Source of the DNA: Neckera pumila
Lineage: Eukaryota; Streptophyta; Bryopsida; Hypnales; Neckeraceae
Assembly: GCA_963969595.1 (NCBI GenBank)
Contig: OZ018411.1
Coordinates: 30,825,445-30,889,444, forward strand
DNA length: 64,000 bases
Direction of reading: 5' to 3'
Part shown: positions 9,032-35,148 of the stretch, in pieces
Numbering within the stretch: position 1 is the first letter of the stretch
How the letters are laid out: the number at the start of each line of letters is the position of its first letter
Notes under the pieces: generated by a model
Databases searched by the model: none
What the model saw: the letters and a program-made list of their open reading frames with translations, nothing else
Told to the model about the DNA's origin: nothing
Program-made: the position numbers and the translations under genes

Positions 9032-9330
9032 CCAGGTTGACAACATCAAACGTCCGGGACCAATTCACGTCCAAAATCCGGACGTCTGGACGTCCGGACA
9101 TCCGGACGCAACGTCCGACCGGACGCAGTGGGTAAAACCGTCGTAAAAAAAAATTACCTTAGGTAATTCGGACGCCGCGGTCGGCGGTCGGTCTGACGAC
9201 CGCATCGGACGGCTAACGGCGGTTAGTATGACGACTGCGTCGGTTGGCTATTGATGTCGGTCGGCGAGATCCGGGAGGTCGGCGCGGTCGGCGCGGTCGG
9301 GGAGATCAGGTTCAGGACGACAGTCACTTA
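9032..9330. promoter_or_regulatory. left terminal region with GTCCGGAC palindromes and CGGTCGG cluster
   Basis: GTCCGGAC-like and GGACGTCC palindromes crowd 9050-9125. ATTACCTTAGGTAAT follows at 9156-9170, and CGGTCGG and its variants recur through 9178-9305. Dense subterminal motifs of this kind bind transposase in hAT and CACTA elements; that role here is inference. Confidence 0.65.
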
Positions 9331-9336
9331 CTCACT

Positions 9337-10270
9337 TTAACTCCTAAAATTCCAAGACCATTTTTCTGCCAAAAAGCATTCAAAACTGCCATTTTTATAG
9401 CAAAGAGTAAAAAAAATTGAAAATTATATTTTTTTAACATCTGACTGAAGGATCTTATACTTAACTAGTATGGCAATGTGCGGAAAAAATTTCAGAATTT
9501 TTGACCGCACACATTGCAAGATATCTGCGTTGAAAGTGAAAAAGACAAGTTTTTCAGCACATTGTGGGACTGGATTTTTTGACTTTGAACATTTTTAACT
9601 TGAAATTTTTGCACTACAGAGTTTTGAGCTTTAAATCTTTATAGTGCACAATTGAGTTGAGAGTCTACCAAAAAAAAATCAAATCAAAGAAACCTAATTT
9701 TTATTACTAAAAGAATTGTTAAATAGAAGTAGGTATGAGATAGAAGGAAAATTTAACATATTAATATCTTTTATATGGAAATAAAGTGCACTAATCCCAA
9801 TGGTGAGATTGTTCTAGCAAAAATACTAAACCATGTTGAAGTGTGGAACTATTTTTTTGGAAAAATTATAAAAATTGCATTTAGAAATGAATCCTACAAG
9901 TTAATTTTTTTAGGAAGATGCTCTAAGTGCCCAAAAAATTAGATTGTCCTTTAACTTTCTCATAACAAATCCAAATGGAATGAATCAAAGCTTTCTAGAT
10001 AGACAAAAATATAATCTATGGGGAAAAAAATAAAAATAAAATAAATTTGCAAAATTTTTGTTGCTGCCACTTCTCCCTTCTTTTGAGGTTATTTGGGCAT
10101 AACTTTTGTTCACGGGCACCGATTGAAAAAAAAATTATATTCCCACAAAGCTTATCAGTTCTTCTATCTTCAAAAAAAGTTTCAAAAAATCAAGACAAAA
10201 ATTCAGCCCGTAGGTACCTACCCAAACTCCAAATTGTCCCCCAAGGGGACAATGGGACTTTAGAGGTTAA
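9337..10270. mobile_element. TTAA-flanked piggyBac-like non-autonomous element (family 1)
   Basis: TTAA at 9337-9340 is followed by CTCCTAAAATTCCAAG, and the right end reads ACTTTAGAGG then TTAA at 10267-10270, giving inverted ends. The interior matches the complete copy at 55918-56852 along its length. The related sequence at 14811-14820 (CATCACTTTAATATAC) is a plausible empty site. It has no coding capacity. Confidence 0.75.
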
Positions 10271-10299
10271 CAGGGAGTCAAGGACGGGAATAATTTTAG

Positions 10300-10665
10300 A
10301 ACAAATAAGGCAGATTAGCCATTGCAATTTCAGACACTTGGGGGTTTGTTTCATTATTGATATTGAAGAGGTCACGGGTTCGAATCTTATTGTGTACCTT
10401 GTTATTTGTTTTCAATAATGAGCTCTTATAAATGTTTATAAATTTGTATTCTACTTCAACTTGAGATGGGGTACTATAGAGGTTTATAAGTATTTATGAG
10501 AGCTTTTAGCTAGGCCTCAATGTTTTTCCATTCATTTTTTCAATTTCATCCACAAATGTCAAAGTCTTCTTAAGAACTTCTAAGAGTTCATTCATTGTTG
10601 AACAAAAATCCAACATTTCCATAGATTACATCAATTCTTTCTGAATTTTAAGTGTATGAATTCAA
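10300..10665. repeat. ~370-bp repeat R, left copy (SINE-like)
   Basis: It is homologous to 14845-15200 in the same orientation, with shared blocks TGTTTCATTATTGAT, CTTATTGTGTACCTT and TTGAGATGGGGTACTATAGAGG. GGGTTCGAATC near 10376 looks like an RNA polymerase III B box, which suggests a tRNA-derived SINE, but no convincing A box or tail was found. Together with the CGGTCGG clusters beside them, the two copies flank the transposase gene as a direct duplication. Confidence 0.5.
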
Positions 10666-10947
10666 TTTACACGTATTAAACTAGGACAACTATGAAGGTG
10701 AAACTGTTCACTACATATAATTCTTGCAATATATTATACCTCATTGAAGAACGAAAACACATAATCAAACTTTATTGGATTGTACTCCAACAGTTTGAAT
10801 ACCAAACAATCCTAATGATGTTTTCTACATCACTAAGCAAAGTAGACAACTTGTACTACAATATAAAGTTCTACCAACCAATTACCATTATGTGCTCTAT
10901 GTATGATGAGCATCAAAACATCTAAGCGGTTCAGGGCGTTTCAGTCT

Positions 10948-13900
10948 CTAAGGCTTGTAATCACTATCTCCTTTTACCTCAGCCCCACTACAATCTCCTC
11001 TACTTTTCCATTCCACGTCTTCGTCGGATGTGACTTCCATATCGTCTGATGAAGAATTCAAAGTTGTCACTCTTCCCTGTTGTACTTGCCTTGATGTGGA
11101 TAATCTCCTTGGTTTGTCCTCCTTCTTTTCCCTTTTTACTTTGAATATGGCGTTCCTCCTATCTTCTTGAAGGGAAGGAATCGTCTTCATTTTTCCCTTT
11201 GAGGAAGGAAGACATGCATCAAGGGAAGTTCTACCTACACCTTATCTCTTGGTTGGGCTCGCTGCAAAAGGCTCCATTTTCCTTTTACTTTTGGATTTTA
11301 TGCAGTGTTGGGCATCCAATTTCACTGCTTCAGCCCCTCCTTGAATAGTTACCTTCATTGCATTCAAAGACAACATTGTAGGAGTTGACGATTTCGTCGA
11401 GCGACGTGGTGGTGCATGACCGGATTCCCGAATAAACATTTATGCCAATGTCTCGTTCATTTCACTGTCGGTTGATGATAAATCGATTTGAGTTGAATTG
11501 ATATGAGGCTGTATTTCTTTTGAAATTCGCACAAGCCGTCTTCCTACACCTGAACTTCCTACACCTGAACTTCCTGAGCCATCTAAAGCTACACTAGAAG
11601 TTTCGCGTACTACACAAGAAATACCAATACATCGTGCTCCTTTGGAATCTTCGATGACTTGCTTCTTACCTTCATCATCATCCAAAGAAATTGGGCTCTT
11701 AGACCCCTGCATCAAACCTCCATCAACATTTCTTTGGACTTCACGAGGTTTATCATTTTGATGACTTGGTTCCCCGCTCTTCTCATTTGCCAATACCACA
11801 ATGGATTGAACACTTGCATTGCCCACATTCATTTGAACATTCAACTGACATCCTCCTTTGCCATTGTGCTCTTCATCCTCTTGCACTTCCTCCATTGTCA
11901 GGGATGTATACTTCAAACTTTGAAGAACTTCATCCGCTTTTGGAGTGTCATCATTGACATTCCTTGTCCCATTCGCCTCCGGATCCTCTTTGTAAGCCGC
12001 TTCTCCTTGCGGTACGAGGTTTCGACTACTCAAAAATCCGGTCCCAGCGCAAAATCTAGCTAGGGGAATGTTATCTTCGCTGTCCGCGTTGATGTTCTCG
12101 TCCGATTCATCGAACTCATAAACGTCTCGATGATTGACCCTAAAGTCTTCATTACTCCGATTAGGGCTCTGAAGCGGTCCATTGTCATAGTCCTCGATGT
12201 CGTCGTTCATGGCATTCTCGTCACTGAATTGGGACCCATAATCCTCGTCAACTTCCTCGTCTTCTGAGATCAACTCCTCTGATTTTCCCGACTCCACGTT
12301 CTCATGGTACCACTTCTTCTCGTCATTTTCTTTTGATGCCGCTAAGACTTTCGAATTGCTGTACACGTACACCAAATTTGCTGCTCTCTGTGGCTTCAAC
12401 TTGTTCCGCGATTTGTTGTGGACAAACGAATAGTTACTCCAATTCCGTTCGCATGAAGACGATGATACTGGTTGGGCCAATATCCTCTTTGCAATTGGAG
12501 CAATGAGCTTCCCACATGTACCTTCAAAATCCCACCAAGCATGTGCCGACAACATCTGTTCGCCCGGGTCTAACATGTTATGGAACGGAGGGGTTCTATG
12601 TCGAAAGGCTACAAATTCCCTCACGACCATTGCGTAATCTGCGGGTTTACAAATTTTCATTATAACTCGCTTGCATGCCTCCGTTGCATATGTATCGTCT
12701 GCTAGTTCTTTATCGTGCAGCAAGTACGGGTTCAGAAGAGCTCCTACATAGTGTAGATCTGTCTCCCCCATTTTTCGTCGGTTCACAAATGAAGCCTGCA
12801 GTCGTTCTGCTCGGTTTGTGGGCAAAGAAAATGGCTCTTTCTCTAAGTCCAAAACATGTTTCTCTAAACCCCTCATAAGATGCAACACCTTCCCCATGCA
12901 AGGTGTCTTCGCATCCAAGTCGCGTAGAGCAAATACAACTGGACCCACCACATCTCGAATATTGACACAACGATTCCAAAAATGCGAATTGAGAACAAAT
13001 TTCTTTACATCTCGAGACTTAGATCGGGGCTGTGTTTTTTGATTGTCCTTTAGCTTCCGCACATATTCCACCCATTGCGGATCCACCACACTTTGTTGTA
13101 ATGCTGCCTTGACCTTCAATACACGATCAATCATGATAAAGTTTGAGGCAAACCTTGTTTTGGCCGGCAACAACAAGCTATACTTCGTCTCGTGCTTTCG
13201 GAATATAGCAAGTGGCATCTGCCTACTCTTGAAGAATTTCACAATGGCATGGGCTTTCTTCAGATACTCATGGATCCATTTTTCCTTCCCCCAATCTTTC
13301 AGCAACAAATTCAAGGCGTGCACCACACATCCTTGAGAAAAAATGTGTGGATACTTACTGGATACCAAATTCCATGCTGCTTGATTTACTGGAGCATTAT
13401 CAGCACTAATTTGTACCACATTGGTGGGACCTACGTGCTCTATAAACTTCTCCAAGACAGATGCCAAATACTCTGTGTTTTTTTCCACCCCGCTTGTATC
13501 TACCGATCCAATGAATTCCTCCCCAGCAGAAGATACGAGCATGGCATTTATCAGTGGGCGGTTTGTAACTGAGCTCCATCCATCAATAGACAATGTTGCA
13601 CCGAACTTCCTTATGCTATCTTCGGTTCTCCTCAGGAGCTTTGCTTGAAGGTCCGTCTTTGCTTCGTCAAGCAATTTGCATCGTAGATCATGATATCATG
13701 GTGGTGTGTATGGCCTATTCCACTCTACTGTGAATTTCACTGCTTCTTTGAAGGCTGGATTTTGGGCTACAATAAATGGTATATTTGTTGCATAAAAAAA
13801 ATTGGCCCACACTGCATTCAATTTGCATTTGTGTGCTTCTTCAAAACCATCTATTAGCCTACTCTGTTCATACGCCCTACTGCTCGATGCCCTAGCAGTT

Positions 13901-14292
13901 CCACGTTCACCGGATGTTTCAATAATTGGATTCCCTTCTGAACCCACACAAAGGATTTCTTGCGGTACTGTGCACGAATCTTCTTGCGTAGAACGTGACT
14001 TGTCCCTGCCATTGGAGAGGTCGCTTTCGTCCGTAGGCATGTTGTTTCTCTCCACATTGCCCACAACCGATCTTCGTGGGAATTTCCCTTCACAACAACG
14101 AAATAGACCTCGAATCTCTGTTGTCAACTTTGGACAAAGGCAAACTCCGGTATCACGAGCCCCAGATGCACCTTCATATCCTAAATGACTCAACATTTGC
14201 GCGGGTTTTTTAGCAAACACCAAGTTGCAAGCCTTGCATTCCACTTTACTAGGTGGCACGAGGCCATACCAAGGAGAAAAGTCCTTGCTCAT
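10948..14292 (-). pseudogene. hAT transposase (BED-like finger, DUF659, hAT dimerisation) with in-frame stops
   Basis: The frame runs from ATG at 14292 to the stop at 10948, about 1,115 codons, interrupted by TGA at 13696-13698, TAA at 11440-11442 and TAA at 11242-11244, with no frameshift. Residues 1-60 hold a BED-like zinc finger (WYGLVPPSKVECKAC, later HLGYEG). DUF659 follows, with the catalytic Asp in LSIDGWSS (about codon 237) and in ISADNAP (about 298) and the CVVHALNLLLKD motif. The hAT dimerisation region has AHAWWDFEG and SSSSCERNWS, with the third acidic residue at about 615, so the DDE triad is intact. A long acidic, Ser-rich tail lies beyond. The TGA separates the finger from the catalytic domain. 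The true end could be 11440. It would cut and join the element ends; this copy is probably silenced unless the stops are read through. Confidence 0.85.
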
Positions 14293-14499
14293 AGTGACAA
14301 GTTTCAATTCCTTATATTTGAACAAATTCAAAATCACAAAGTGCAAACACAGTGTCAATATCAATAGTGTCCAAAATCAGTTAAGCACGATGTGCACAAA
14401 GCCTTGAAAATCAAGGCCCCCCCGTCCACTGAACTATGCATTACCGAGCAAGGGACACAAAAAATTGCAGCTCCTAGCCCTCGGAAATCTTAGCGTCCA

Positions 14500-14775
14500 G
14501 TTTCTGAGGAGTGCTTCTAAAAGCTTTCTTCCTTCTACTTATACTCCTCACTTGCTGCCGACCGTTGGAGGTCGAATTAAACGGTCAGTCAATTTACGCC
14601 GTCTGATTTTCGGTCACGGCGGTTAGGGAAGTCGGGGCGGTCCGCCGGAACGGGCGGTCGGAGAAGTCGGGGCGGTCGGGAAAGTCGTCGCGGTCGGTTA
14701 ATCGGGGCGGTCGGGGAAGTCGGGGTGGTCGGCCATCCGGGCGGTCGGCGGGGCTGGGCGATTGGTCAGAGGAAT
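14500..14775 (-). promoter_or_regulatory. transposase promoter: TATA plus CGGTCGG cluster
   Basis: Read on the minus strand, GAGTATAAGTAG (TATA at 14538-14543) lies about 246 bp upstream of the transposase ATG. It is preceded by about 180 bp with many CGGTCGG/GGTCGGGG units on the plus strand. The same arrangement stands before the other three genes of the element. A proline/arginine-rich ORF at 14594-14782 is a by-product of the repeat. Confidence 0.6.
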
Positions 14776-14844
14776 TTGGCATTTGGCATTTTGGCCGTCA
14801 AGCCATCACTTTAATATACACAACAATGATTTCAGAACACATAG

Positions 14845-15200
14845 GGTCCGGTAGACCAGCCATTGCAGTTGGGGGCACTTGGAGGTTTGTTTCATTATTG
14901 ATCATGAATAGGTCATGAGTTCAAATCTTATTGTGTACCTTATTCTTCAATTTCAATATCCAGCGCTTATAAATAGTTACAGATTTCTATTCTACTTCAA
15001 GTTGAGATGGGGTACTATAGAGGACTGTAGGTATTTATGAGCGCTTTTAAATAGGTGTCAATGTTTTTTTTAATCATATTTTCAATTTAATCCACAATTG
15101 CCGAAGTCTTTTTGAAATTTTCTAGAAATTTTGCTCTACATTGAACAAAAACTCAATATTTTTCTAAGTCACATTCATTTTTTCTGAATTCTAACTCTTA
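14845..15200. repeat. ~370-bp repeat R, right copy
   Basis: This is a second copy of the repeat at 10300-10665 in the same orientation, with GAGTTCAAATC in place of the B-box-like GGGTTCGAATC. It lies just upstream of the transposase promoter cluster. Confidence 0.5.
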
Positions 15201-16916: not shown

Positions 16917-19900
16917 TCAGCATCTGCCACTACCCTCTCCTGAAACAGGAGACGTCCCTTCTTCAGCCAAGAGTCTCTTAGCAGCTTGGCGAGTTTGGCG
17001 TTGTTGACTTACTCGAACAAGGCGCCCTCCTGAATGCACTTCCTTGTCAACCTTGGAAAACATCTGTTTTGATTCTGGAAAGTGGTCATCCTCATCTTGA
17101 ACCTTACGTTTTCTCTTTCTCGCGGGAGTCAAATCTACTTCGCCGGCGCTGAGAGCTCTCAAAGCAGCATCCACTCGATCTACCATTGCGTTCACTGCCA
17201 CGTCATCGTCTTTGAATTGCAAATTGTTTGATCGATCTCCTTCCAACAGGAATGCCCTCCATTGAATTATAATGTCGGACATCCTCCTGTCGAATGCCCC
17301 TGCCACATCCACTAATGCATGCTCTATACTTGTTGGTGCATCTACTTGTACAAGAGCGCGAACTTTTGCAACTTCTTCCAACTTTGACAAGAAGAGGGCC
17401 TTGCCAACCAAAGTGTGGTTATACGCGTCGTACTGCTCATTAAATTCTTTTGGACCCTCCACCTCCACCCAATTGCCATCTGGCCCTTTCTTCACTTCCT
17501 TTTCAGAAAATCGGAAGAATTTCTGGTGCTGCACGCTCCAATGCCCCCCCATGTTGCGACAAAATAATTCACGACCCTCTCCATCTTCAATAACTCGTGC
17601 TCGCAACTCCACCTCCCTGTTCATGGTCATCCACATGAGGTCATCTACTGCTTCTTGGGACTCCTCGTAAAGTGCATGCTTTCGCTCATTTGCATCCCAG
17701 GTCAAAGGTTTTCTCCAATGCAAGTAATTAGAAAACTTGTATGGTCCTTGGTCCAATGGAAGGTTCCATCGATTGTATTTGTGGCCAGGGGGCATCACTT
17801 CCAAAATCCCAAGCATTTCATAGAACCTAGGACTCAAAGGAGAACGACACTCGGCACAAACTGAACGAATGAGCGATGCTCTAACCATGCATATTACATG
17901 GAAAGTGTGGCGACACTGGCCCATGGTTAGAGCTCCTTCAGGGTCAAAGGGGCCTTGACAAACGCTACAGTGGCCCTCCAAGATGCCCAGGGCTGGATCA
18001 CAAGCATGTACTACAACCTTCTCATGCTTCTTGATGTGTGCTGAAAGTGTATTGTAAGGCACCCATCCTTCCTCTGCTTCAAAGGTCCAATTCACATTGT
18101 TGACCGATGATTCCTTCTTCGTGTGATTCAACCGCTCAAACATGGCATCCATGTCTCCCCAACATGTAATGTCGGTGTACCCCCTGGTTTGTTGATGGAA
18201 TGCATCCTGGAACCTCTTTAAAGAGGTCTCAATGGCACTATAATCTTCATCCGACTTCATTGCCAATTTTTGAAGTCCTTGCATTGCTCGGGATACCACG
18301 GAGGGCCTATCTTGGAGAATCTGTATCCATGCCAACCACCGAGACTGCAATCCGTTCCCGGGCATATAGTGACGCAAGTCCATTATCTGTTTCATTCGTT
18401 CCAACTCCGACTGAAGAAGGGCTTTTTCTCGAATTGTTTCATTGCATTTGTGCTTCAGCTCTTCAAACTCTTGACCTTCAGTTTGCATGGAAGCATCCAC
18501 CAATGTCGGGGTAGGGTTATTGATGGAGGAACGTACTTGCACTTCCCATTTACGGGTGTCCTCGTCATCCAAATGCACAATTTCAATATCCTACACTGCT
18601 TGGACTTTATCTATAGGAAGAGAGAGTTTATCTTCACTTTCTTGACTTGGCTCCACAGAAGGGGCGTTCACATTGTCTGTAATGGGTACCGTTTCATGCA
18701 TCCGATTGAACCGAATGAGTTCTACTTCTAATCTTTCATCCTCATCCACACGGACAAACATTATAGAATTCCTGCGCTTTTCTGCCTCCACAAGCTTTTT
18801 TTCCATCTGCAATTGTCGGGCCAAGTCCTTGCACTTTGCCTTCAACTTCATGTTTTCTGACTCCAAGAGAAGCAGCTCGCTGGCTTTGCCTACATTGTCG
18901 TCCAGAAGTGGTACCATGGACTTAGTGAAATCCAAGAAAGACAAGGCACCAGTCATCAATTCTGGAGAGATTTTGGAGAATTCTTGCGCCATCTCGATAA
19001 TCCTTGGCGTAATTTGAGCTACAAGTCAAGCTGAAGACGTTAGTGAGAAAGCGGTTTCCACAACCGATGGCTGGACAGCTCCCCATAGATGCATCCCAGA
19101 GCTACTGGCCTCGTGGTTGGGGTCATTTTTCTTGAGCTCTTCTTGATGCTTCCTCCACCGATTGTCGCACTCTAGCAGGAAGCCTGCTTCCTTGGTAGTG
19201 GGCGTTAGACTGAGGTTCTCCAATGGGTGATCACCCGCAGCTGACAAATGTGGATGCTCGTTTTGAGTCTCTCTACCATCAATGATAAAGTTCATGGCAT
19301 CGTCATGGGGTTCTTTTCCGTTTCTTCGCGTCGGTTCTACTTCCATTTCTGGACTTATAATAGGACTTGTCGGCGAAGACAAAGGAGGAAGAGGTGTGTA
19401 CATGAAGGGTTGTAGAGCATTGCTCTCTAGAAGACTATCAATTCTAGCATTGGCCCTTGCAACTTCTTTGTCACCAACCTCTGATCGTGGCAAAAAAGGT
19501 GTCCCATCTCCTATCGCAAGGCCACGCTTGTTTGGAGCAGTCTCTCGACCTAGCATAGTACTCAAAATCGGTTTGGAAGTCAAACAAATTTGATGAGTCA
19601 TAAACACATGTCTCTTCGCACCTCCCGAAGAGGCGTTGCTCACTTTCACCGGGGGAGTTGAGAAGACTTCTTCTGTTGTACCTTCCACGAGGGCATTGCC
19701 AACTTCCGCAAGGGCACGCAATGAACCCAATTGCGCTGCATCACTTGTCCCCTCCCCCACCTTCGCTGTAGGTGTTGTAGTAATTTGTAATGCTTCGTTT
19801 GGTTGTGCCTGGGAGTTGCGGGTACAATGGGGAATATCTTTCTGGCTTCTTCCAATCAGAAGTGGACACTGTGCTATTGTAGGAAACGTACTCCAATCCA

Positions 19901-20309
19901 CCTTACGGCCCAGTATGAGTTCCGCATAAACCATAGATGCCAAGGTATAATTGATGTATCCCTTACTCATTTTTTTGTCTCCAAAAAGCGCTTGCCAGAC
20001 CTCCTTCGATCGATGAACAAAATGCTCGTTTTGGCAACTTCCTGGCTTGCACCCGAAAGCCCGTGTGTGGACCTCGTGAAAATCTTGAGGCCACAACTTG
20101 CCAATGTGGTACATTTTAACATACTGCTTGCAGATTCTAGAGGTCCAACATTCTGCTTCCTCTTGCTCCCATCCGCTTTCGGCTTTGATGTCAGGATTAT
20201 CTAAAATCTCATAATGAAGCTCATGTTTGGCTCCCTTCTGTTTAATCCTTTTCGTATTATCACCACCTGAAGTCATCCCATCAATAGCCGCATCACCTTC
20301 ACCACTCAT
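16917..20309 (-). pseudogene. Cys/His-domain, coiled-coil, RING-H2 protein with two in-frame stops
   Basis: A single minus-strand frame runs from ATG 20309 to the stop at 16917, about 1,130 codons, interrupted by TGA at 19026-19028 (codon 428) and TAG at 18591-18593 (codon 573) without frameshift. The N-terminus has CKQYVKMYHIGKLW and HFVHRSKEVWQA, shared with the 370-aa protein at 25715. The middle has leucine-rich coiled coils (18690-18900; 18390-18470). A canonical RING-H2 finger lies at 17847-17969, C-x2-C-x14-C-x-H-x2-H-x2-C-x10-C-x2-C. A basic PARKRKRK signal near the C-terminus suggests nuclear entry. A RING suggests ubiquitin-ligase activity, perhaps acting on host or transposase. Alternatively these are two or three adjacent genes, because ATGs follow the stops; the shared frame makes one broken gene more likely. 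Confidence 0.7.
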
Positions 20310-20499
20310 GATTGGCAATTTGAAATTGCCTTGTCTTTCAATTCAAGAAACACTCCCCAAGTGACCTCCAATTTATATACACAAGTAAAACAGTCAAAAA
20401 GTTCCTGTATGAAAAGCTCAATGACTTCAACTCTCCACCATGTAGGAGCAACTGGTGCATAAAGCAACAGAGATCAGCCAACTTGGCGCCGAAGGGGAG

Positions 20500-20990
20500 T
20501 TGAAGTGAGGAGGTCCGAGGAGGCCGTCCGCTCTTATAGCCGACCGGCCCCAGACCTAAGCGGCGTCCGCCACCGGACCGGCCTCGAAGCTCGCGGACTT
20601 GCCCCGGACCGACGTCGCCCGCCTCGACGGCGGTCTCCGCGGCCGCAGTCCGATCCGAACTGCTGCCGACCGCGAGCCGACCAACCCCGTCGACCGCTCC
20701 GATGTGACCGATCGCCCGAACCGGAAAACTCAACTGAAGAAGCCATCCAAACCGGACACGGTAGTTGTAGGGTATGCCAACCGCTTCAGCCGACCACTTC
20801 GGACGCTTGCCGGGGCCGACCGCCTTAGACGACCGCATGGGCCGACCACTTCGGACGCCTGCCGGGGCCGACCGCCTCAGACGACCACATGGGCCGACCG
20901 CTTCGAACGCCTGCCGAGGGCCAACCGCCTCAGATGACCGCATACGCCGACCGGGCCGACCGCATGGGTTGACGAGAGAACAAGACCGAT
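20500..20990 (-). promoter_or_regulatory. RING-gene promoter: TATA plus CCGACC cluster
   Basis: On the minus strand GGCTATAAGAGCGG (TATA at 20533-20538) lies about 225 bp upstream of the ATG at 20309. Upstream, GCCGACCGC-type units recur through 20980, including a ~57-bp near-repeat (GCCGACCGCCTCAGACGACC variants) at 20760-20960. Arg/Pro-rich ORFs on both strands here are artefacts of the repeat. Confidence 0.6.
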
Positions 20991-24609: not shown

Positions 24610-25270
24610 GCTAGAAGTTTATTCTCCGGACCGATTTCCCAACCGACCGACCAATTTGCCGATGGCCGTCCACACTGCTCGGACGAGCGGTCTAGAAGCC
24701 GACCGGAAAAGCCGACGGACCAAGACCCTGACCAAAAGCCTGACCAAAAACCGGACCGAAAGCCGGATCGAAACCTGACCGCCCGAAAACCGGCCCGAAA
24801 ATCGGACCGACTGAAAACCAGATCGAAACTGAAAACTGGACCGACCAAAAACCTGACCGAAAACCTGACCGACCAAAGACCCGACCGAAAACTTGACCGA
24901 CCGAAAACTTGACCGACCAAAAACTTGACCAACCAAAAACTTGACCGACCGAATACCCGTCCGAAAATCGGACCCAGCGGAATCCCGACCGAAAACCTGT
25001 CCGACTGAATACCCGACCGACCGACCCAAAACCCGTCCAAAAACCGACGCGACCGAAAACCTGACCGAAAACTATACGACCGAAAACTTGACCGAAAACT
25101 GTACGACCGAAAACCCGACTAAAAACCTGACCAACCGAAAATCCGACCGACCGACCGAAAAGCAGTCCGAAAACCGGCCCGACCAAAAACTGCACCAACT
25201 GAAAACCCGACCGCTGTGCTGACGGACCGATCACCCGTCCGAAAACCCGACCGAACGATCGGACGACCGA
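24610..25270 (+). repeat. CCGACCGAAAACC tandem array
   Basis: About 50 imperfect units of GACCGAAAACC or CCGACCGAAAAC fill this stretch. The same unit in inverse orientation (GGTTTTCGGTCGG) fills 34735-35045, at the right end of the element. All six frames are open over long distances, giving spurious Asp/Arg/Lys- and Phe/Gly/Ser-rich ORFs. Confidence 0.85.
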
Positions 25271-25440
25271 CTCCGTCGAAGCTGTCCGCCTTTTACGTCC
25301 GCTCTTTCGTCGGTGGCCGTGCGATCAGAAGGCCGACAGATGTGATCCGCACAATCCTGGGGTCGGTCGGCGTGTCGTTCGATTCGGTCGTACGCGACCG
25401 CCTCGGCTTCTCCGCCGACCGAGCGCATAAATAGCGGGGC
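25271..25440 (+). promoter_or_regulatory. promoter of the 370-aa gene
   Basis: Further GGTCGG/CCGACC units are followed by CGCATAAATAGCGG, with the TATA box at 25426-25433, about 285 bp upstream of the ATG at 25715. The layout matches the other three gene starts in the element. Confidence 0.6.
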
Positions 25441-25714: not shown

Positions 25715-26827
25715 ATGTCACACAGAACACCAAGGGGCAAAGGCGGTAAGTCCAAGAGGGGAAAATCGCAGGACATGAATTGGCAGGATTGGGCTGACCC
25801 ATTCTGTGTAGCTGAGCTTGGATGGGAAGATGAGCCCACAAAATTGTGGACCTGCACAATGTGCAAAAAGTATGTAAAAATGACACATGTCTGCAAACTC
25901 TGGTCACATGAGCGCACAATGTATCAACATCCTCGTTGGGAAGGACAAATCAGCACATGTATGAGCAAGCACTTTGTGCAACGGTACAAGGAAGTCCAAG
26001 AAGCAGCAGGTTTACCAAACAACAAAACAAATATCATGTTGTATGGTGTTATGGCCATGGTTTGGACAGAGATTGTACTGCACAAAGAAGTGGATTGGCG
26101 CACTGTTCCGGGTAAAGATGTGCACAAATTGAATTGCAGCGCCCACGTGATTGATTCGAACTGGACAGGTCCCAGCGATTGCATGTATGAGCATTCTAAT
26201 CGAGGATATGGCCATCTTCCTACAGTTGTGTTGCCGAATGTAGAGGATGAACTCGATGAAGAAGATGATGACGATGATGCTCCTGCTCCCGTAACATTTG
26301 GAGGAACACAGTTATGCCAAGAAGAACAAGACAACATACAATACGAACAAGAAATGCATGAGGCCATGCGAAGAAGCCTAGAAGATCGTGGTCAACAACT
26401 TGGGCACGATAGGTCATACAAACGTGACCGTGGTGCATATGGCCCACCACAAGGCGGAAGTCATTCTCAATATGGTAATGATCCACGAGGTGAATCTCGA
26501 GGCAGAGAAGGAAGCCATGGAATCGTGCAATATGGTGGTTCTAGCCAAGGAGGCTCACAATACTACGGTGGGACCACTAGAGGTGGGTCATATGAGCATC
26601 AAGGAAGCTCTTATTATAGTCGTCCAAGCAAAGGTCGATCTGTCCATAGTGTTTCAGCTCCTCCGCCGACTTTTGGAGGTCCTGGCTACGACATTCATGG
26701 ACAAGCAGGTGCATCAAGTGGACGTGGAGACATCTACGGTGGAGGTCCATATCTTGGGGTTTATGGGTCTGGTTCTACTGGGCCAAGTCAGAGAGATGAC
26801 ACCGATTCAGATTCCGAGGAAGAATAG
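25715..26827 (+). CDS. Cys/His-domain protein with UIM and Gly/Ser/Tyr-rich tail (370 aa)
   Basis: The frame is intact from ATG 25715 to the stop at 26827. Residues 1-20 are basic. Residues 44-130 carry a domain shared with the RING gene at 16917: WTCTMCKKYVKM (Cys47, Cys50), CKLW, STCMSKHFVQRYKEV, then KEVDWRTVP. Residues 176-188 are very acidic. Residues 210-225, YEQEMHEAMRRSLEDR, fit the ubiquitin-interacting motif (Ala217, Ser221, acidic flanks). Residues 225-356 are rich in Gly, Ser, Tyr and Arg with GGS, YGG and RGG units, like RNA-binding or phase-separating tails, and the end is DSDSEEE. The function is unknown; the combination suggests ubiquitin reading and condensate formation, perhaps with the RING protein. 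It has the same promoter design as the other genes of the element. Confidence 0.75.
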   Translation: MSHRTPRGKGGKSKRGKSQDMNWQDWADPFCVAELGWEDEPTKLWTCTMCKKYVKMTHVCKLWSHERTMYQHPRWEGQISTCMSKHFVQRYKEVQEAAGLPNNKTNIMLYGVMAMVWTEIVLHKEVDWRTVPGKDVHKLNCSAHVIDSNWTGPSDCMYEHSNRGYGHLPTVVLPNVEDELDEEDDDDDAPAPVTFGGTQLCQEEQDNIQYEQEMHEAMRRSLEDRGQQLGHDRSYKRDRGAYGPPQGGSHSQYGNDPRGESRGREGSHGIVQYGGSSQGGSQYYGGTTRGGSYEHQGSSYYSRPSKGRSVHSVSAPPPTFGGPGYDIHGQAGASSGRGDIYGGGPYLGVYGSGSTGPSQRDDTDSDSEEE

Positions 26828-27347: not shown

Positions 27348-28240
27348 TTAACCCTTGAAGTTCCAAGGCCATTTTGTTGTCTACAACCACCCAAAGCTGC
27401 CATTTTTGTTGCATTCACCCATGAACACGGAATTCTATTTTTTTTTAATCTAAGTGTAGGATCTTGTACTTCACTTGTCAAAAATGATGTGGTCAAAATT
27501 TCATGAAGTTTAACCATATAGGTTGGAGGTTATTAGCATTCAAACTTGAAAAAGAAATTTTTTTTGAATGCTGGCTTCCAATTTGTGCTGAATTTGATCT
27601 GCAATTGTATAATATTTTTGAAATACAAATTTTGAATTCAAGATTTTGTATGTTGGAGACGTGAGTTGGAAGTCTAGAATTTTGTTTTAAAGAGAACACT
27701 TTGTTTTCATTATTTTAAAAATTATTAAGTAGAAGTTGGTGAGTAGGTCGAAGACAAGAAAAACAAATTTGTTAATAGATTTCACATAGGATTGAAATAT
27801 AATGATTCCATTGTTGAGATTATTTAAGTCAGAAAACACAACATTTTGGAAAAAAATATTTGAAAGTTTCTTGGAATTGTATTGAGAAAAGAATTTTAGA
27901 AGTCATTTTCCTAAAAAGATGCTCAAATTCTCTGAAAAGCAAAGTTCTCCATAAATTTTTCATTATTAGTCCAAACAAAAGGAATGGAAGGTTCACATGT
28001 AGAGAAAAGTATAAAATTTTCCAAAAAGATTTTTTTTTTTTTTTTTGGACTTGTTCTGATAATCTGATATAACTTTTGCTCCCAGGCACCAATTGAAATA
28101 AAAAATCTATTATGACAAAGCTAATCAACTTTCCTATGAAATAGGTAAGTTTCAGAATGTTTCAATATAAATTGAGGTCAGAGGTAAACGCCCAAAATGT
28201 ATTTTGTCTTGCTCGGAGACAATGGAACTTCTGGGGTTGA
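27348..28240. mobile_element. TTAA-flanked piggyBac-like element (family 1)
   Basis: TTAA at 27348-27351 leads CCCTTGAAGTTCCAAGGCC. The right end is AATGGAACTTCTGGGG then TTGA at 28237-28240, one base away from TTAA. The interior order of blocks matches 55918-56852. Noncoding. Confidence 0.65.
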
Positions 28241-28464
28241 ACATTGCATGTGCATTTTGGGCTCCATGAAGTAGAGTCCCAAGGCCTTACTTTTGGCAAG
28301 AAATCTTAGACTTCCAATTTCTATAGGATAGAATATAACAATTAGAAACTTCTTTTATGGGCACATGACCACATATAGGCATAGGATCTTACATCCAACT
28401 AGTATATGGATTTGTGGAGCATTTGACATAATTTTGGACCACACATATTGCAAGATATTTGTGT

Positions 28465-29621
28465 TTAATCCCTAAAGTTTTTTGACTATGTTTTTACTTT
28501 TTACTACAACTGCATTAAAACTACCAGTTCTAGTATAAGTACCAAATTCTAGAATTTTTTTAATTTTGGACACATATAACCATAGGATCTTGCAATGAAT
28601 GGGTTTGAAAATATGCGGCAAAAATTTCAGAATTTTCCACCATGTAGATTGTAAGATAATAGCGTTTCAATTGACAAAAATGCTTTTTGGGTCCCTGCGA
28701 AAAACAGGGCACCTGCACTTCACAAGGTCACATTCATATGAAAAAATGTCCAAAATGGGGGTAACTCTTAGAATTCATTCTTGAAGGCAAGTTAGGTACA
28801 TGCTTGACAAATTTTAGGTCATTTACAATTGTACAACACATAGGAAGAAAATAGAAGATAGAAAAAAAAGAGGATGATTCAGAGGACTACATTGTTCTGA
28901 ATTTCATTGAAGAATAGGAAGAAGCCAATTCCATTGGTTGTAATGTTAAAATGAAGAATGTACACCCAATTTTTTTATTTTTATTTTCAGGAATATTGAA
29001 ATTTGAATTAAATAATTGACTTTGAATATTTTTTTAGAGTAAGGATTTCAAAACTACCTTCAACTAAGATCGGAATGGAATGATTCAAAGCTTCTTGCGT
29101 ATATACGAATCTAAAGAACCAATTTGAAATTTTAATTTTTTAACCCTAAAACGACGCTGAAGTCGTTTTCTGGTCGATGAATGAGAGGGGATCTTGTAGT
29201 CTAGGATAGAAATGTATGATTTCATCCTCGAAAATAAGAGTGGAAAGGGGAGAGCTTTTATAGTGCTTTGACTTTCGATGCTTACTTTAGGAATTTTTTA
29301 TTCTAATTGTTCCCACGGTTTCAAAAAACCATGATTTCCACCGTTCCACGTAAACCAGTTCGGCGTTGAAGGGTTAAACAAGTGATTTTTTAAGAAGTTT
29401 TTTTGCTGCCTGAGCTGCCCAGAGATAAAAGAAAACTGCATATCATGCAATAACTTTTTCACCTTGTGGTTGGATGTTGTGAAATTATTGGGCCTTGAAG
29501 CTACTCCTCAGACACATCGTGTGTGAAAATTTGAAAGAAGGAAAATAAAAATTCCATGCATAATGAATTGCCTAAAATCGCTATCTTGCCCCAAAATGAT
29601 ATTTGATCCTTTAGGGGTTAA
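28465..29621. mobile_element. TTAA-flanked element, family 2 (1.16 kb), nested
   Basis: TTAA at 28465-28468 is followed by TCCCTAAAG, and the right end is CCTTTAGGGG then TTAA at 29618-29621. Interior sequence matches the family 2 copy at 32730-33742. It sits in a family 1 element whose empty site is preserved at 56112-56115. Confidence 0.75.
29140..29377. mobile_element. 238-bp TTAA-flanked MITE, nested in the family 2 element
   Basis: TTAA at 29140-29143 and 29374-29377 encloses CCCTAAAACGACGCTGAAG ... CGGCGTTGAAGGG, giving inverted ends of about 15 bp. The uninterrupted family 2 copy has CTTAAAGTGATTTTTTAAG near 33461, which is the empty site. It is less AT-rich than its host element. Confidence 0.8.
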
Positions 29622-30149
29622 AGTGGAGAAAAGAAGTTTTTGAAGACATTGTGGGATGCAGTCTTCTGCTTTTGAAGTTTGTAAACTTGAAACTTTTGAA
29701 ATAGTGAGTTGTGAGCTTTGAATTTGGAAATTGGAAATTCTGGTGAGAGTTTAGCCAAGAAGAAATTTCAGAAAACTTAATTATCAATATTTTAAAAATT
29801 CATAAAGAGAATTGTCAAAGTGGGTACAATAAATCTTCAATTTTAATATCTTTTGCATTTAATAAGACTAGAGTAATTGAATGGTAAGATTATTGTAGCC
29901 CAAAAAATTGAACTACACACACCTATTTTGGGGAAAAAATATTGAAGAAATTTCATTCAAGAATGAATTTCTACAAATTCATTTTCTGAAGTGCATTGAA
30001 AATAAGATTGTATAGAACTTTTCATAACCAATCCAAATGGAATGAATGAAAGCTTTCTAAATTGACAACAATATCATCAATGGGAAAAGAACACACAAAG
30101 AAAACATTCTTTGTTGGCTGCCACCGTCTTCCCTATTTTCAGCTTATTT

Positions 30150-30370
30150 CACCCTAAAACCGCCGGCCGCCCTCCCCGCCGACCGCCTCCCCGCCGACTG
30201 CCCTCCCGGCCGACCGCTATGGCGAATTCTAAGCCCTCGCAACCGTCCGATGGAGCGGTCGCGCCATCGGATGCGGCGTACCAGCCGATGGAGCGGTCGG
30301 GCCGTCCGATGCGGCGAACCCTAAACCCATGGAGCGGTCGGGCCGACCGCAAAGTATAAGAGGGGCGGAT
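30150..30370 (+). promoter_or_regulatory. kinase-gene promoter: CGGTCGG/GCCGACC cluster plus TATA
   Basis: GCCGACCGCC and GGAGCGGTCGGGCC units crowd 30165-30350, then AAGTATAAGAGGGGCGG (TATA at 30355-30361), about 260 bp before the ATG at 30621. GGAGCGGTCG with CCGATG between units recurs with a period near 25-45 bp. Confidence 0.6.
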
Positions 30371-30620
30371 GGCCCAACCGCTCCCTCACTTTTGCTCACC
30401 CCCTTGCCTTGTGCAAGCGTGGAGCGGAGAGCTTGGTGGTTCGTCCTCCATTGGCTCCTCTCCTCGGGAAAGCAAGAGTCCGCTTTTGGGGGCCCCTTAT
30501 TGCTAAATTTTTGTACAAGTTCATTGAAGATTACGTGTACCTCAGAGTGAAATTGAATTGGAAGTTTGAAACTGGTAATTTTCATTACCAACTGTAATTA
30601 AATATCGGTAATTCATCACG

Positions 30621-32105
30621 ATGCCAAGGGCAAAGAAGGCTGCGAAGAGGAGAAAAAGGGTGCAATCATGGCAATCAAGTATCAAAGAGTTTAAGGAAAT
30701 TCCCTCGGATGCATGCAAGAACTTTCTCATCGAATTCACCTTGAAATTCTTTGAGTCTGAAACTACTCTTTCTTTAGACAGCAAATACATTAGATACAAA
30801 GAAGAGTGTTCCAAAAAATTCATCGATGATATGACACAGAAGACGATGGAAGCTCTTCATGTTCCTGAATGGCATCATGAAATGGAGAAGAAGGGCTTCT
30901 TGAAATTTCTTCACAACAGGGCATATGATGCGCTGTGGAATTCCAAAGTGGTTCTCGCAAAATATGTGAAGGAGCACCGTGCCAATGATGAAGCTTTTCA
31001 GGAAGTCATCCTCAGAGCTGATTTATTCACAAAGCGGTGCAAGCCATTTGCTCAATCGCGGAATAGAAAGAAGTCAATGTTATGGTGGAATAGTGATGAT
31101 GGGAAGGCTGAATTATACCATGGCAGGAGACATCTCGTTGCTCTTCCCGAGACGGCACAAGTGATAGCCCAAGATGATAAAATCATAAAGGGTGGATACG
31201 CTACAATTCGGAGGGTCCGAATTGAAGGTTGTGCTCCTATAGCACCGTTTTGGGAGTTTGCAGCAAAGAGATCTCACCAACACAACAAAAGGCCCAAGTT
31301 AGCGAAGTTGGAACACTTGAACGAATCAATGGCAGTGAGGATTTCGCACCCGGGAGTAATACATTTTGTTGCAGTGCATGCGACAAGGAATGAAGGATAC
31401 TCCTATTGGTGGAATGACGGAACACTGCGTCATATGCTGAACATGGATAATGCTTATCCAGACAACATACATGTTCGGTTGTTGTATGACAATCCAACAA
31501 ATGCAGAGGTGATTAACGCTTTCCGCCTTGCTCGGTTCAGGAAAAAGCGAACGGAACTTACATGGGCGTTTGTGCACATTATGAATGCAGTGCATGTTGC
31601 TGGACATCTCCACAATGATATTTCTCCAGACAACATCATGTTTCACTTCCCCGATGACGAGTCACGTGTGTACGTTGGAATTTGTGATTGGGGCTTGACT
31701 AGCTTAGCTAGTGAACATCCTAAATCCTTGTACACATTCACATCTGCCATTCAGAGGGACCAAACTTTGGCAGAGAGGTGGTGGTTGGATCCTAGTAGCG
31801 CCTATTTGCACAAAATTGATGCGAATGAGGACGTCATTCCAAGGTTATCATGCGAAACGGAAGCACATGCGGTTGCTAAAATAGCTCAAAGGATGAACAT
31901 GCAATGCATGTCCGAAGCCTACACTGCACTGCAGAAGGAAACTCCACAAGTCAGCAAATTCAAACACCAAGCATTGGGACTGGCATTTCACCAATACTTG
32001 GACCGGGTCATCAGAAAAGAAAGCACTTTGGCCCACGTCGTGAATCGATTTTGCACTACTTTCAAGTTCCCTATGCCCAATGAATATTTTCGGCAATCAT
32101 ACTGA
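30621..32105 (+). CDS. transposon-borne divergent protein kinase (494 aa)
   Basis: The ORF is intact from ATG 30621 to the stop at 32105. Residues 5-13 (KKAAKRRKR) look like a nuclear localisation signal. Residues 20-170 are a helical N-terminal extension I do not recognise. The kinase fold has IIKGGYATIRRVRI (glycine loop, 188-201), Lys216 in FAAKR, ISHPGVIHFVAV (241-252), the catalytic loop HNDISPDNIM (331-340, Asp333, Asn338) and CDWG in place of DFG (Asp356). All catalytic residues are present, so activity is plausible. The HxDISxxNIM plus DWG pattern recalls FunK1-type kinases of fungi, but this is a recollection. Its carriage in a hAT element could serve to phosphorylate transposase or host regulators. 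Confidence 0.8.
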   Translation: MPRAKKAAKRRKRVQSWQSSIKEFKEIPSDACKNFLIEFTLKFFESETTLSLDSKYIRYKEECSKKFIDDMTQKTMEALHVPEWHHEMEKKGFLKFLHNRAYDALWNSKVVLAKYVKEHRANDEAFQEVILRADLFTKRCKPFAQSRNRKKSMLWWNSDDGKAELYHGRRHLVALPETAQVIAQDDKIIKGGYATIRRVRIEGCAPIAPFWEFAAKRSHQHNKRPKLAKLEHLNESMAVRISHPGVIHFVAVHATRNEGYSYWWNDGTLRHMLNMDNAYPDNIHVRLLYDNPTNAEVINAFRLARFRKKRTELTWAFVHIMNAVHVAGHLHNDISPDNIMFHFPDDESRVYVGICDWGLTSLASEHPKSLYTFTSAIQRDQTLAERWWLDPSSAYLHKIDANEDVIPRLSCETEAHAVAKIAQRMNMQCMSEAYTALQKETPQVSKFKHQALGLAFHQYLDRVIRKESTLAHVVNRFCTTFKFPMPNEYFRQSY

Positions 32106-32729
32106 ATATCAATAGGTTACCGACTTACCGTAGTATATAGAATTATAGAGATACATAAGTAGTTAATGAATGTAGAGGTGAGGATTTATCGTATGTAGAG
32201 GACGTAGTATATATGCACATATAATGTATACCAATGTATGTGGAATTGGACATACATTTTGATTTTTTGTGTGTTTTGGAAATTGTAATGAATAGAAGTG
32301 TTTACTCTATGAACTGTATGCTTTGTTTGGATGTGAAGTGCAATATTTCTTGTTAATGGATATTGAATTAGCTCGGTTGCATGACAAATAGCATGATATA
32401 TGACATTTGGATATTTTGAACTTAGGCGTGAAGCGACACATTTGTAGGGTGAAAGGAATATTAAGAAAATGTGAAGATCTGAAAGGCCAAAAAGTGAGGT
32501 GCAAAATATGAAGAAAATTTTAATTCATACCATTCAAAGGATTTATGAGGATTTAAATTTCATACCATTTCAAGGATTCAAATCCCCTACCCACAAAGAA
32601 ATAAGATGTGAAAAGAGAAGTAGAATATGAAACCAATGAAAGTACGTAACTAAATATGAAAAGGTGTCAATTTGAACCAAAAAAATTTCCCTGAGAAAAG
32701 TTTGTTTTTGAAAAATTAAGGGTGTGAAC
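32106..32729. other. 3' flank of the kinase gene
   Basis: AT-rich spacer with no gene. TTTCATACCATT(T)CAAGGATT is repeated twice near 32525-32580. Confidence 0.4.
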
Positions 32730-33742
32730 TTAACCCCTGAACCTTGTTGACTATGTATTCACCGAAAACGCTCCAAAATTGCCATTCCCCAAAAAAGTAC
32801 CAAATTTTAGAAATAAAATATTGTTGAACACATGTAACCATAGAAATGATAGAATCTTGTAGTGAACTGCTTTAAGAAGATGTGGGAAAAATTTTAGAAT
32901 TTTCCACCATGTACATTGCAAGATAGCAAGGTTTGAATTGACAGAAATGCTTTTTTGGTCCTTACAAAAAACCAGAGAGGTACACTTCACAAGGTGTCAT
33001 TTGTATGAAAAAGCGTTGAAAATGGTGGTTACTCTTTGCCTCTTTGGATTTGGTTTTGAAGTGAAGTTGGCTCTATGCTTAAGAATTTCCAGATCATTTG
33101 GAATTGTAGAACATACAGGAAAAAATAGTATGTAGAAAGAAGTAGAGAATGATTCAGACCACTAAACTCTTAAGAATTGAATTATATAATTGGAAAACGC
33201 CAATCCAAATGGTTATAATGTTGTAATAACCTATTGTCCTATCCACATCCAATTTTTTTTTTTTTTTCCAAAGATATTGAAAATGGAATTGAACAAAGGA
33301 CTGCAAAGTGCCAAAGTTTATTTTTTGAGGCAGGAATCCACAATTGCCCGCAAACTAGATCACCTCACAATTGTGATCTCATAAATGAAAATGAAATAAA
33401 TCCAAAGCTGAAGTTGCATATATAGATCTGGAGAACCAATTTCAAATTTTATTTTTTTCTTAAAGTGATTTTTTAAGAATTTTTTGAGCTGCCCACCAAG
33501 CATTAAAAATCACATATCATACAATAACATTTTGATTGTGCTGTACTGCTGTTAGAAGTTATGAAGAATGTCGGACCTTAAAGGTACTCCTCCTGAAAAT
33601 GCTGTGAAAAAATTTGAAAGCAAAAAATAAAAACTTTGCTTGTAGTATTGTAGTAAGCTCCCCAAAATGCTATGTTCTCCAAAATGCATGTTCTCCAAAA
33701 TACATGTTCTCCAAAATGCATGTTCAATGCCTTAGGGATTAA
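32730..33742. mobile_element. TTAA-flanked element, family 2 (1.0 kb)
   Basis: TTAA at 32730-32733 leads CCCCTGAACC. The right end CCTTAGGGATTAA ends at 33739-33742. It matches the family 2 copy at 28465-29621 and contains the intact TTAA that was hit in that copy. Near its right end (33663-33725) about four tandem 17-bp units of CCAAAATGCATGTTCTC occur. Confidence 0.7.
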
Positions 33743-34734
33743 ATTAATACTTTGACAGGAGTCGTAGTATCTTATCCGAAATAAGATGGTGTGAAAATAA
33801 TTGAAAAAAAATGTACGACAACCATAGTGAGACAATGTTATTCCCCCCCTCCTCCAAAGTAGTGTGCAAAAATAGAATTTTTTTTTCTACACCAATTGAA
33901 GTGTCTTCCCACAAAAAGTAGGGTGTGATAATAAACCAAAAATTCCACACCTATTAAATTTTCTTGTTTCTGTTTTTTTGAAGTTCATAATTTCTTCTTT
34001 TGGTAATCTCGACTTTTCTATTGCTCTTGTTTGGTTACTTCAATGCAATGGTAGTCCCATTTTCATAGCAAGTAGTTGCATGACATTGCAAGATGGCCTT
34101 TGTTCTTAATAACTATTAATTCCTTTAATAAAAATCAGCACTCCTCAAGAGATGTTTAATTCATTTCAATCAGTTACATCACTCTAAGCAATTCTTGCCA
34201 TGGCCAGAACTTCTCAAAGACACTTCCGCAAAATTCGATTTCCACTCAGACACCCACGTGCCTTCATTGTTGAATTCCCTGTTCCATTACTCCTATAGCA
34301 TTCAGTAGCTTGCACCCTAAACCCAAACAAAAGGGGAAAAAACAAGTTTTCTGTACAACTTGTATGACAAGATTATTTGGCTTCGTGTCATCTAAACTTA
34401 TAATTTTTTATCTATTGATATTCATTTAAAAAAATTTCTTCAATATTTGAGGGAAAAATTTAAGAAACAAATTTAGGAAATCATAACTAAATTTTCATTC
34501 ATTATAGAATTAATAAATGGAACTAGGTTTCAAAATAAAGAGAAAATTTGAAATATGAAATTGAAATTCAGAACAGAACTCTCTTTTGGTGTATTGTATC
34601 CTTTTTATCAATGGAAATTGTTCATGTGTTTCAAAAAAAAAAGAAATTCAGAACACAACTATACCAAAGCTCACAATATTTTAGAAACCGATTAGAAGCA
34701 TATGTATTAATTTTTTCTGAGAACTTGTAAAAAC
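33743..34734. other. gene-free AT-rich spacer
   Basis: No coding sequence, RNA gene or clear repeat was recognised, apart from short poly-A/T runs. Confidence 0.4.
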
Positions 34735-35148
34735 GGGTCGGGGTTTGGGTCAGGTCGGTCGCCCAAGCGGTTTGAGTCGGGGTTGGGCTCACCGGTCGTC
34801 TGATCGTTCGGTTGGTCAGGTTTTCATTCGGGTTTTCGGACGGGTTTTCGGATAGTCAGCTGTTCGGTCGAGTATCGATCGGGTTTTTGGTCGGTCTGTC
34901 CGGTTTTCGGTCGGTCTGAATTTCGATCGGGTCGGCGGTCGGGTATTCGGTCGGTCAAGGTTTCGGTCGGTTTTTTGGTCCTGTTTTCTATCCTTCGATC
35001 ACATTTTCGGTCGGTCCGGTTTTTGGTCGGGTTTTTGGTCGTGGAATTTACCATGTAGGTAAAAAACGTAAAAAGTGAATGTCACAGGACGTTACAGGGG
35101 CAGCGTCCCCGGACTCTGGACGTCCGTTCGGACGTCCGGACAACTCAG
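34735..35148. promoter_or_regulatory. right terminal region: GGTTTTCGGTCGG array and GTCCGGAC palindromes
   Basis: 34735-35045 is an imperfect tandem array of GGTTTTCGGTCGG, inverse to the array at 24610-25270. 35046-35065 has TTTACCATGTAGGTAAA. 35100-35140 has GGACGTCC and GTCCGGAC palindromes, as at the left end. The element ends CAACTCAG at 35148. Confidence 0.65.

What the first reader, a model, noticed from the sequence alone, without database searches (positions are those of the whole stretch)
9032..35148. A 26-kb hAT transposon carrying a kinase, a RING protein and a UIM protein
Seen: an 8-bp direct repeat (GTTTAGCT) brackets 26,117 bp; both sides continue one gag-like element; and a paralogue at 59380-59387 shows the site without the insertion. 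The interior has a hAT transposase plus three non-transposase genes. Known: hAT elements duplicate 8 bp and are normally 3-5 kb. Inference: this is a very large, cargo-bearing hAT element, comparable in concept to fungal Starships, which I do not know to be described in plants.
Basis: partly seen in the sequence, partly recalled or inferred. Interest (0 to 1): 0.95.

Follow-up and report, generated by a model that had tools for sequence, protein, structure and literature searches.

The report
Giant four-gene hAT transposon in moss
A 26,000-base jumping gene, several times longer than usual for its kind, carries its own cutting enzyme plus a fixed set of three other proteins (a kinase and two ubiquitin-related ones), and many copies of it, from at least two old lineages, sit in this moss-like genome.

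Summary
The same genome holds many copies with these ends. Of 27 whose ends were paired and read, 21 have an exact 8-bp duplication, four have 7/8 and two none. Seven of 12 large copies were read in full; all seven carry the same four genes in the same order: hAT transposase (-), RING protein (-), UIM-like protein (+), kinase (+). Shorter copies (0.4-11 kb) look like deletion derivatives and MITE-like forms. A divergent group (mostly 44-66% protein identity) has the same block and related ends (CAGGGTTG...); 7 of 11 copies read have exact 8-bp duplications. One motif, CGGTCGG, marks both ends and the front of all four genes in seven of seven copies. Most parts of the transposase, RING and kinase genes show purifying selection; for the UIM-like gene it is not significant. 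So this is a hAT element whose extra genes look like fixed components rather than Starship-like cargo. The window's copy is broken by stops in its transposase and RING genes, and none of the seven full copies is intact. What the accessory proteins do is inferred, not shown.

The parts
9032..35148 (.). giant hAT element, 26,117 bp
   Evidence: exact 8-bp duplication, empty-site paralogue, further copies
9024..9031 (.). left target-site duplication GTTTAGCT
35149..35156 (.). right target-site duplication GTTTAGCT
9032..9131 (+). left terminus, CCAGGTTGACAA...
   Evidence: 40 matches scored of 67 candidates in the own genome
35040..35148 (+). right terminus, ...GGACAACTCAG
   Evidence: 40 matches scored of 63 candidates in the own genome
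11440..14376 (-). hAT transposase gene (zinc-finger-like N-terminus, a reading by eye; DUF659; C-terminal dimerisation region); one in-frame stop at 13696-13698 that the six other copies read in full lack at that place
   Evidence: Pfam; motifs; stop
16917..20342 (-). RING-protein gene, three collinear pieces of one frame (1,141 codons); here stops at 18591-18593 (also present in copy E) and 19026-19028
25715..26827 (+). UIM-like protein, 370 aa, open; N-terminal Cys/His domain shared with the RING protein
30621..32105 (+). protein kinase, 494 aa, open, catalytic residues kept
9115..9300 (.). CGGTCGG cluster, left subterminal (6)
14558..14748 (.). CGGTCGG cluster in front of the transposase gene (6)
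20540..20962 (.). CGGTCGG cluster in front of the RING gene (7)
24643..25421 (.). CGGTCGG cluster in front of the UIM-like gene (15)
30179..30349 (.). CGGTCGG cluster in front of the kinase gene (5)
34908..35014 (.). CGGTCGG cluster, right subterminal (5)
59380..59387 (.). unoccupied site in the paralogue (GTTCAGCT)

Best explanation
This is one copy of a family of giant hAT DNA transposons that moved by cut-and-paste as units of about 24-27 kb. The element's DUF659-type transposase recognises the short terminal repeats and the CG-rich repeated motif beside them, excises the unit and inserts it with an 8-bp duplication. The three other genes (RING protein, UIM-like protein, kinase) are old, fixed components of the element. 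Because the motif at the two ends also stands in front of all four genes, I propose that one element-encoded protein, most likely the transposase or the Cys/His domain shared by the RING and UIM-like proteins, binds both, so that expression of the set and readiness of the ends are controlled together. The RING/UIM/kinase set most likely tunes transposition through ubiquitin and phosphorylation: transposase level, repair of the excision gap, or host silencing. Shown: ends, duplications, copies, gene order, motif placement, selection on most of three genes. Inferred: movement by this enzyme, binding, co-regulation and every protein function.
For: Exact 8-bp duplications in 21 of 27 paired copies of the window's family, 9 of 12 among the large ones. 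Four genes in the same order in W and in 6 of 6 other ~26-kb copies read in full (five further large copies were read at the ends only). Deletion derivatives with the same ends. Divergent group: duplications exact in 7 of 10 pairs; an 11th copy has none. RING gene in the W arrangement at 16 of 16 near and 36 of 36 divergent kinase loci that have one within 40 kb; UIM-like gene likewise at 18 of 18 and 47 of 47 within 30 kb; all four in order at 15 of 20 and 18 of 61 kinase loci. Motif clusters only at the two ends and in front of the four genes in 7 of 7 copies. pN/pS 0.49 (transposase C-part), 0.43 (RING C-part), 0.40 (kinase), upper bounds 0.64, 0.55, 0.52.
Against: None of the seven copies read in full has all four genes free of stops, so present autonomy is not shown. 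pN/pS of the UIM-like gene (0.82), transposase N-part (0.74) and RING middle part (0.79) have intervals that include 1. UIM-like has no Pfam hit; RING and kinase lie below Pfam's curated cut-offs. The motif could be a promoter relic or a satellite-like expansion. Large copies I and K show no duplication, nor do two divergent copies. 4 of 20 near and 25 of 61 divergent kinase loci have no RING hit within 40 kb, though hit lists were capped. Loci are not all independent insertions: C5:1.30M and C5:1.33M share a flank.
Confidence: 0.8

Rival explanations
1. Cargo carrier: a large hAT element that captured host genes, which ride along without a role in transposition, like Starships, ToxhAT or Pack-type elements.
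For: Large or gene-bearing hAT elements are in print: ToxhAT, 14 kb (passages of PMC9594970), and fungal hAT elements with a captured histone H3, about 9.5 kb (passages of PMC6710886). The UIM-like gene shows no significant constraint.
Against: The same three genes, order and orientation recur in the near and the divergent group, with a shared end/promoter motif and, for two of them, selection like that on the transposase's main part. Captured cargo would be expected to vary.
Confidence: 0.12
2. Nested composite: several smaller elements piled up, with the outer 8-bp duplication made by one of them.
For: CG-rich blocks and internal repeats are spread through the interior, and copies of 31-33 kb exist.
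Against: Seven copies at different sites share the whole layout at nearly the same coordinates; six have their own exact duplication and the seventh, A, 7/8.
Confidence: 0.03
3. A domesticated or endogenised virus-like element that uses a hAT transposase, as Teratorn joined a virus with a piggyBac-like transposon.
For: Kinase, RING and ubiquitin-binding proteins are of the kind that large DNA viruses use against their hosts (recalled).
Against: No relative of the kinase by tblastn in viral contigs or in prokaryote genome contigs; no capsid or polymerase domain among the ten ORFs scanned; the UIM-like model finds no significant viral or PDB fold.
Confidence: 0.04

Closest known systems
Ac/Ds family of maize (hAT); start of the abstract of PMC3260210 in a search listing
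   Same: hAT type; short terminal repeats plus subterminal repeats; an autonomous form with internally deleted and ~400-bp relatives
   Different: Ac is 4.6 kb, with one gene (gene count recalled); here ~26 kb and four genes, with the subterminal motif also in front of every gene
Gulliver of Chlamydomonas (passages of PMC6027215)
   Same: hAT of the green lineage, the longest of the 276 plant hAT sequences of that study
   Different: 7,144 bp; that study found no hAT sequence in the moss Physcomitrella
ToxhAT of wheat-pathogenic fungi, 14 kb (passages of PMC9594970)
   Same: large hAT-type element known for a non-transposase gene (ToxA)
   Different: fungal, about half the size; no four-gene set of this kind in the passages seen
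hAT elements with captured histone H3 in fungi (passages of PMC6710886)
   Same: multi-copy hAT with an extra gene and 8-bp duplications
   Different: about 9.5 kb in P. fijiensis; captured transcript of a host gene, its copies there inactivated
Starship elements of fungi (abstract starts in a search listing)
   Same: giant mobile unit with several genes
   Different: classified by a tyrosine recombinase, with up to hundreds of accessory genes; here a hAT transposase and a fixed small set
Teratorn (abstract start of PMC10175614 in a search listing)
   Same: giant composite based on a DNA transposon
   Different: piggyBac-like, 180 kb, joined with a herpesvirus (the virus recalled); no viral gene found here

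Membership tests
hAT superfamily | 8-bp target-site duplication | tested here: met
   exact in 21 of 27 paired copies and in 7 of 11 of the divergent group
hAT superfamily | transposase with hAT C-terminal dimerisation region | tested here: met
   PF05699 E 1.3e-9 and PF04937 (DUF659) E 2.3e-34, both above the curated cut-offs
hAT superfamily | catalytic D, D, E with CxxH and a conserved W (motifs recalled) | tested here: met
   SIDGW, ADNAP, CVVH, CERNW in this order in the transposase; catalysis not tested
hAT superfamily | short terminal inverted repeats; plant pattern [T/C]AGNGNNG (PMC6027215, passages) | tested here: met
   the divergent group typically begins CAGGGTTG and ends CAACCCTG, with variants, and fits the pattern; short copies have CTGAGTTGTC/GACAACTCAG, a 10-bp inverted repeat, which does not fit that pattern; in the window's own copy the repeat is imperfect
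hAT superfamily | usual length, a few kb | tested here: not met
   26,117 bp; other full copies 26.2-26.8 kb; longest plant sequence in PMC6027215 is 7,144 bp. Length is customary, not defining
Starship | tyrosine-recombinase captain (DUF3435, recalled) | tested here: not met
   no such domain among the 10 ORFs scanned, 6 of them inside the element; smaller ORFs not scanned
Starship | accessory genes that vary between elements (recalled) | tested here: not met
   same four genes in 7 of 7 copies read in full
Teratorn-like transposon-virus fusion | virion genes in the element | tested here: not met
   none among the ORFs scanned; no viral relative of the kinase
UIM proteins | match to a ubiquitin-interacting motif model | tested here: not met
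   no UIM hit in Pfam; only a motif-like helix EQEMHEAMRRSLED at residues 211-224, consensus recalled
protein kinases | catalytic Lys, Asp, Asn and Asp (VAIK, HRD, DFG equivalents) | tested here: met
   AAK-, HND....N- and DWG-type residues invariant in 16 aligned sequences; Pfam Pkinase E 3.6e-5, under its cut-off; activity untested
RING E3 ligases | RING zinc-finger domain | tested here: inconclusive
   six RING-type models at E 1.7e-5 to 0.035, all under curated cut-offs; ligase activity untested

The most novel reading that the evidence does not exclude
A lineage of hAT transposons has become a multi-protein mobile system: transposase, RING E3, ubiquitin reader and kinase form one regulon, read through the same DNA motif that marks the element's ends, and the ubiquitin/kinase set is needed to move or protect a 26-kb unit. 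The set is older than the split of the near and divergent groups seen here and probably occurs across mosses.
Probability: 0.5. Interest if true: 0.92.

Novelty: new variant of a known kind. Interest (0 to 1): 0.86.

Why it matters
Cut-and-paste transposons of this superfamily are normally one-gene elements of a few kb. A 26-kb hAT with a conserved four-gene set breaks that picture, offers a plant counterpart to giant fungal elements, and makes a direct test possible of whether a transposon carries its own ubiquitin and kinase machinery to control its movement or its host. It would also explain repeated kinase and RING 'genes' in moss annotation as element genes.

Tried and rejected
Nested composite of small elements: rejected, because seven full copies share one layout. 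Chance 8-mer: rejected. Variable-cargo Starship reading: rejected as membership. Viral origin: no support. Bacterial or archaeal origin of the kinase: no relative in genome contigs; one protein hit, P0005 (61% identity), is labelled a Bacilli MAG, which I take for contamination without proof. UIM by Pfam: no hit; 6 of 17 members show weak zf-C3HC (best E 0.0054), a lead only. Model of the UIM-like protein: mean pLDDT 59.8, residues 21-160 about 75-95; no match at E 0.001 or better. Dropped before counting duplications: one false end pair 78 kb apart on C7 (6/8) and four right ends without a paired left end. The script misplaced the right end of copy E; its 8/8 comes; H was read by eye. For some searches and 134 hits were retyped and fragments of one gene merged: 81 kinase loci from 88 rows, 67 RING loci from 81, 58 transposase loci from 74, and 81 UIM-like rows of 143, leaving out second fragments and 33-37% matches that are the RING gene's own shared domain. 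One search stopped with an error and was rerun.

Paper searches (ten); three of them held no paper. None of the rows listed was, by title and start of abstract, about a giant hAT of a moss or other plant; one search listed 25 of 39 and 8 of 1,454. Preprints and most subscription journals are not held. Of the papers I saw passages of four (PMC6431247, PMC9594970, PMC6027215, PMC6710886); the rest only in listings.
Full report
OBSERVATION. The window lies at C4:30825445-30889444 of a 339.5-Mb, 18-contig genome without a name. The one plant named among the kinase's relatives is the moss Ceratodon purpureus (47% identity), so 'moss' is an inference. GTTTAGCT at 9024-9031 and 35149-35156 brackets 26,117 bp; the flanks are continuous in a paralogue at 58426-61102, where the 8 bp occur once, as GTTCAGCT.

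COPIES IN THE SAME GENOME. The left 100 bp gave 40 matches scored of 67 candidates and the right 109 bp 40 of 63, so counts are lower bounds. Pairing ends in the right orientation and reading them gave 12 large copies (23-33 kb), 9 medium ones (3.6-11 kb) and 6 small ones (about 0.35-0.6 kb). Exact 8-bp duplications: 9 of 12 large (W, B-H, J), 7 of 9 medium, 5 of 6 small; 7/8 in A, M2, M9 and S4; none in I and K. The duplicated 8-mers differ from copy to copy.

GENE CONTENT. All seven carry transposase (-), RING (-), UIM-like (+) and kinase (+) at nearly the same positions. Medium copies are made of blocks of the giant; blocks over 1 kb are 92-97% identical to it, some inverted. None of the giant's proteins was detected complete in them; three 11-kb ones keep most of the front part of the RING gene. 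This is the pattern of an autonomous element with Ds-like derivatives. The small ones were not compared inside.

STATE OF THE WINDOW COPY. Its kinase and UIM-like frames are open. The transposase frame has one stop (13696-13698) and the RING gene two (18591-18593, 19026-19028); copy E shares the stop at 18591-18593, and the others lack all three. The RING pieces are collinear in one frame of 1,141 codons; copy A runs through the W stops but has a stop of its own further on. No copy of the seven is free of stops in all four genes.

SELECTION. Over seven copies, 21 pairs, pN/pS is 0.49 (transposase C-part, 95% bootstrap 0.37-0.64), 0.43 (RING C-part, 0.32-0.55), 0.40 (kinase, 0.32-0.52), 0.59 (RING N-part, 0.46-0.79), 0.74 (transposase N-part, 0.45-1.28), 0.79 (RING middle, 0.31-2.98) and 0.82 (UIM-like, 0.53-1.34). 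Because copies decay after insertion, these values probably understate constraint; pairs are not independent.

DIVERGENT GROUP. Own-genome searches with kinase (88 matches), RING C-part (81), transposase (74) and UIM-like protein (143) show a near group (82-100%) and a divergent group (mostly 44-66%, a few fragments outside); only part of the candidates was scored. Of 61 divergent kinase loci, 36 have a RING gene of that group within 40 kb and each of the 36 has one in the W arrangement; 47 have a UIM-like gene within 30 kb, each with one upstream on the same strand; 18 have all four in order. For the 20 near loci the numbers are 16 of 16, 18 of 18 and 15. A set of divergent loci with RING about 9-10 kb from the kinase, few of them with a right-end hit, may be a third lineage. 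Of 36 divergent right-end hits, 26 lie 2.8-8.7 kb (by hit coordinates) from a divergent kinase, on its downstream side and in its orientation; one is in another orientation and nine have none near. An eleventh copy, C11:6.33M, has none. Typical ends are CAGGGTTG.../...CAACCCTG, which fits the plant hAT pattern [T/C]AGNGNNG of PMC6027215 (passages).

SHARED MOTIF. CGGTCGG/CCGACCG occurs 44 times in the element and 0 times in the rest of the window. In all seven copies, joining hits less than 700 bp apart gives exactly six clusters: two subterminal ones and one in front of each gene. In the divergent stretch L060 (8.5 kb) the related motif CGTCCG/CGGACG occurs 27 times, 15 in front of the kinase and 12 in the right subterminal part. 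In L061, which starts inside the kinase gene, 11 of 14 are right-subterminal, one is in the gene and two lie beyond the end. This is the strongest hint that the four genes and the ends form one regulatory unit.

PROTEINS. The transposase has DUF659 and the hAT dimerisation region and the catalytic motifs in order. The kinase keeps its catalytic residues in 16 aligned sequences. The RING and UIM-like proteins share an N-terminal domain (34% over 114 residues) with invariant Cys and His in the UIM-like set; its model has no significant match in PDB or BFVD. Relatives of kinase (46), RING C-part (18, only part of the candidates scored) and UIM-like protein (21) turn up among public, mostly unnamed proteins; the kinase does not in viral contigs or prokaryote genome contigs.

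READING. Membership in hAT is met by duplication, transposase and ends; length is far outside the usual. What it works like: an autonomous cut-and-paste element with a dedicated accessory set. What the accessory proteins do is inference.

Noticed in passing
window 5141-5611 (-): A third copy of the Cys/His domain shared by the RING and UIM-like proteins (22% identity, E 1e-4) lies outside the element, perhaps a relic of another family.
   Followed up: partly
window 55918-56854: 82% identical to 9337-10272 inside the element: probably a relic of a related element near the unoccupied paralogue.
   Followed up: no
window 48962-51778 (-): A long frame that looks like a pentatricopeptide protein with a DYW tail (recalled), with 4.5 tandem 303-bp units at 91%.
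   Followed up: no
genome C11 (12.3 Mb): Holds 22 of 61 divergent kinase loci, although it is 3.6% of the genome; perhaps a sex or repeat-rich chromosome.
   Followed up: no
C11:6.33M (L062, L060) and C11:6.45M (L070): The left flank of one copy (GCAATGGG) equals the right flank of the other, in opposite orientation: likely an inversion between two giant elements; the other two flanks do not match.
   Followed up: partly
C5:1.30M and C5:1.33M (L026, L054): Two right ends share the flank TTCATAGGAGAAAA in opposite orientation: a duplicated, inverted segment.
   Followed up: no
C7:18213939, 18277518, 18341090: Three transposase copies at 63.6-kb spacing, which points to a tandem segmental duplication.
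   Followed up: no
L037 (C7:7702257-7708022): A 5-kb derivative is flanked on both sides by pieces of a divergent kinase gene: one family nested in another.
   Followed up: no
left ends of copies: 8 of 12 large copies begin CCAGGTTGAC, whereas 10 of 15 shorter ones begin CTGAGTTG; the right end also varies (CAACTCAG, CAACCCTG and others).
   Followed up: no
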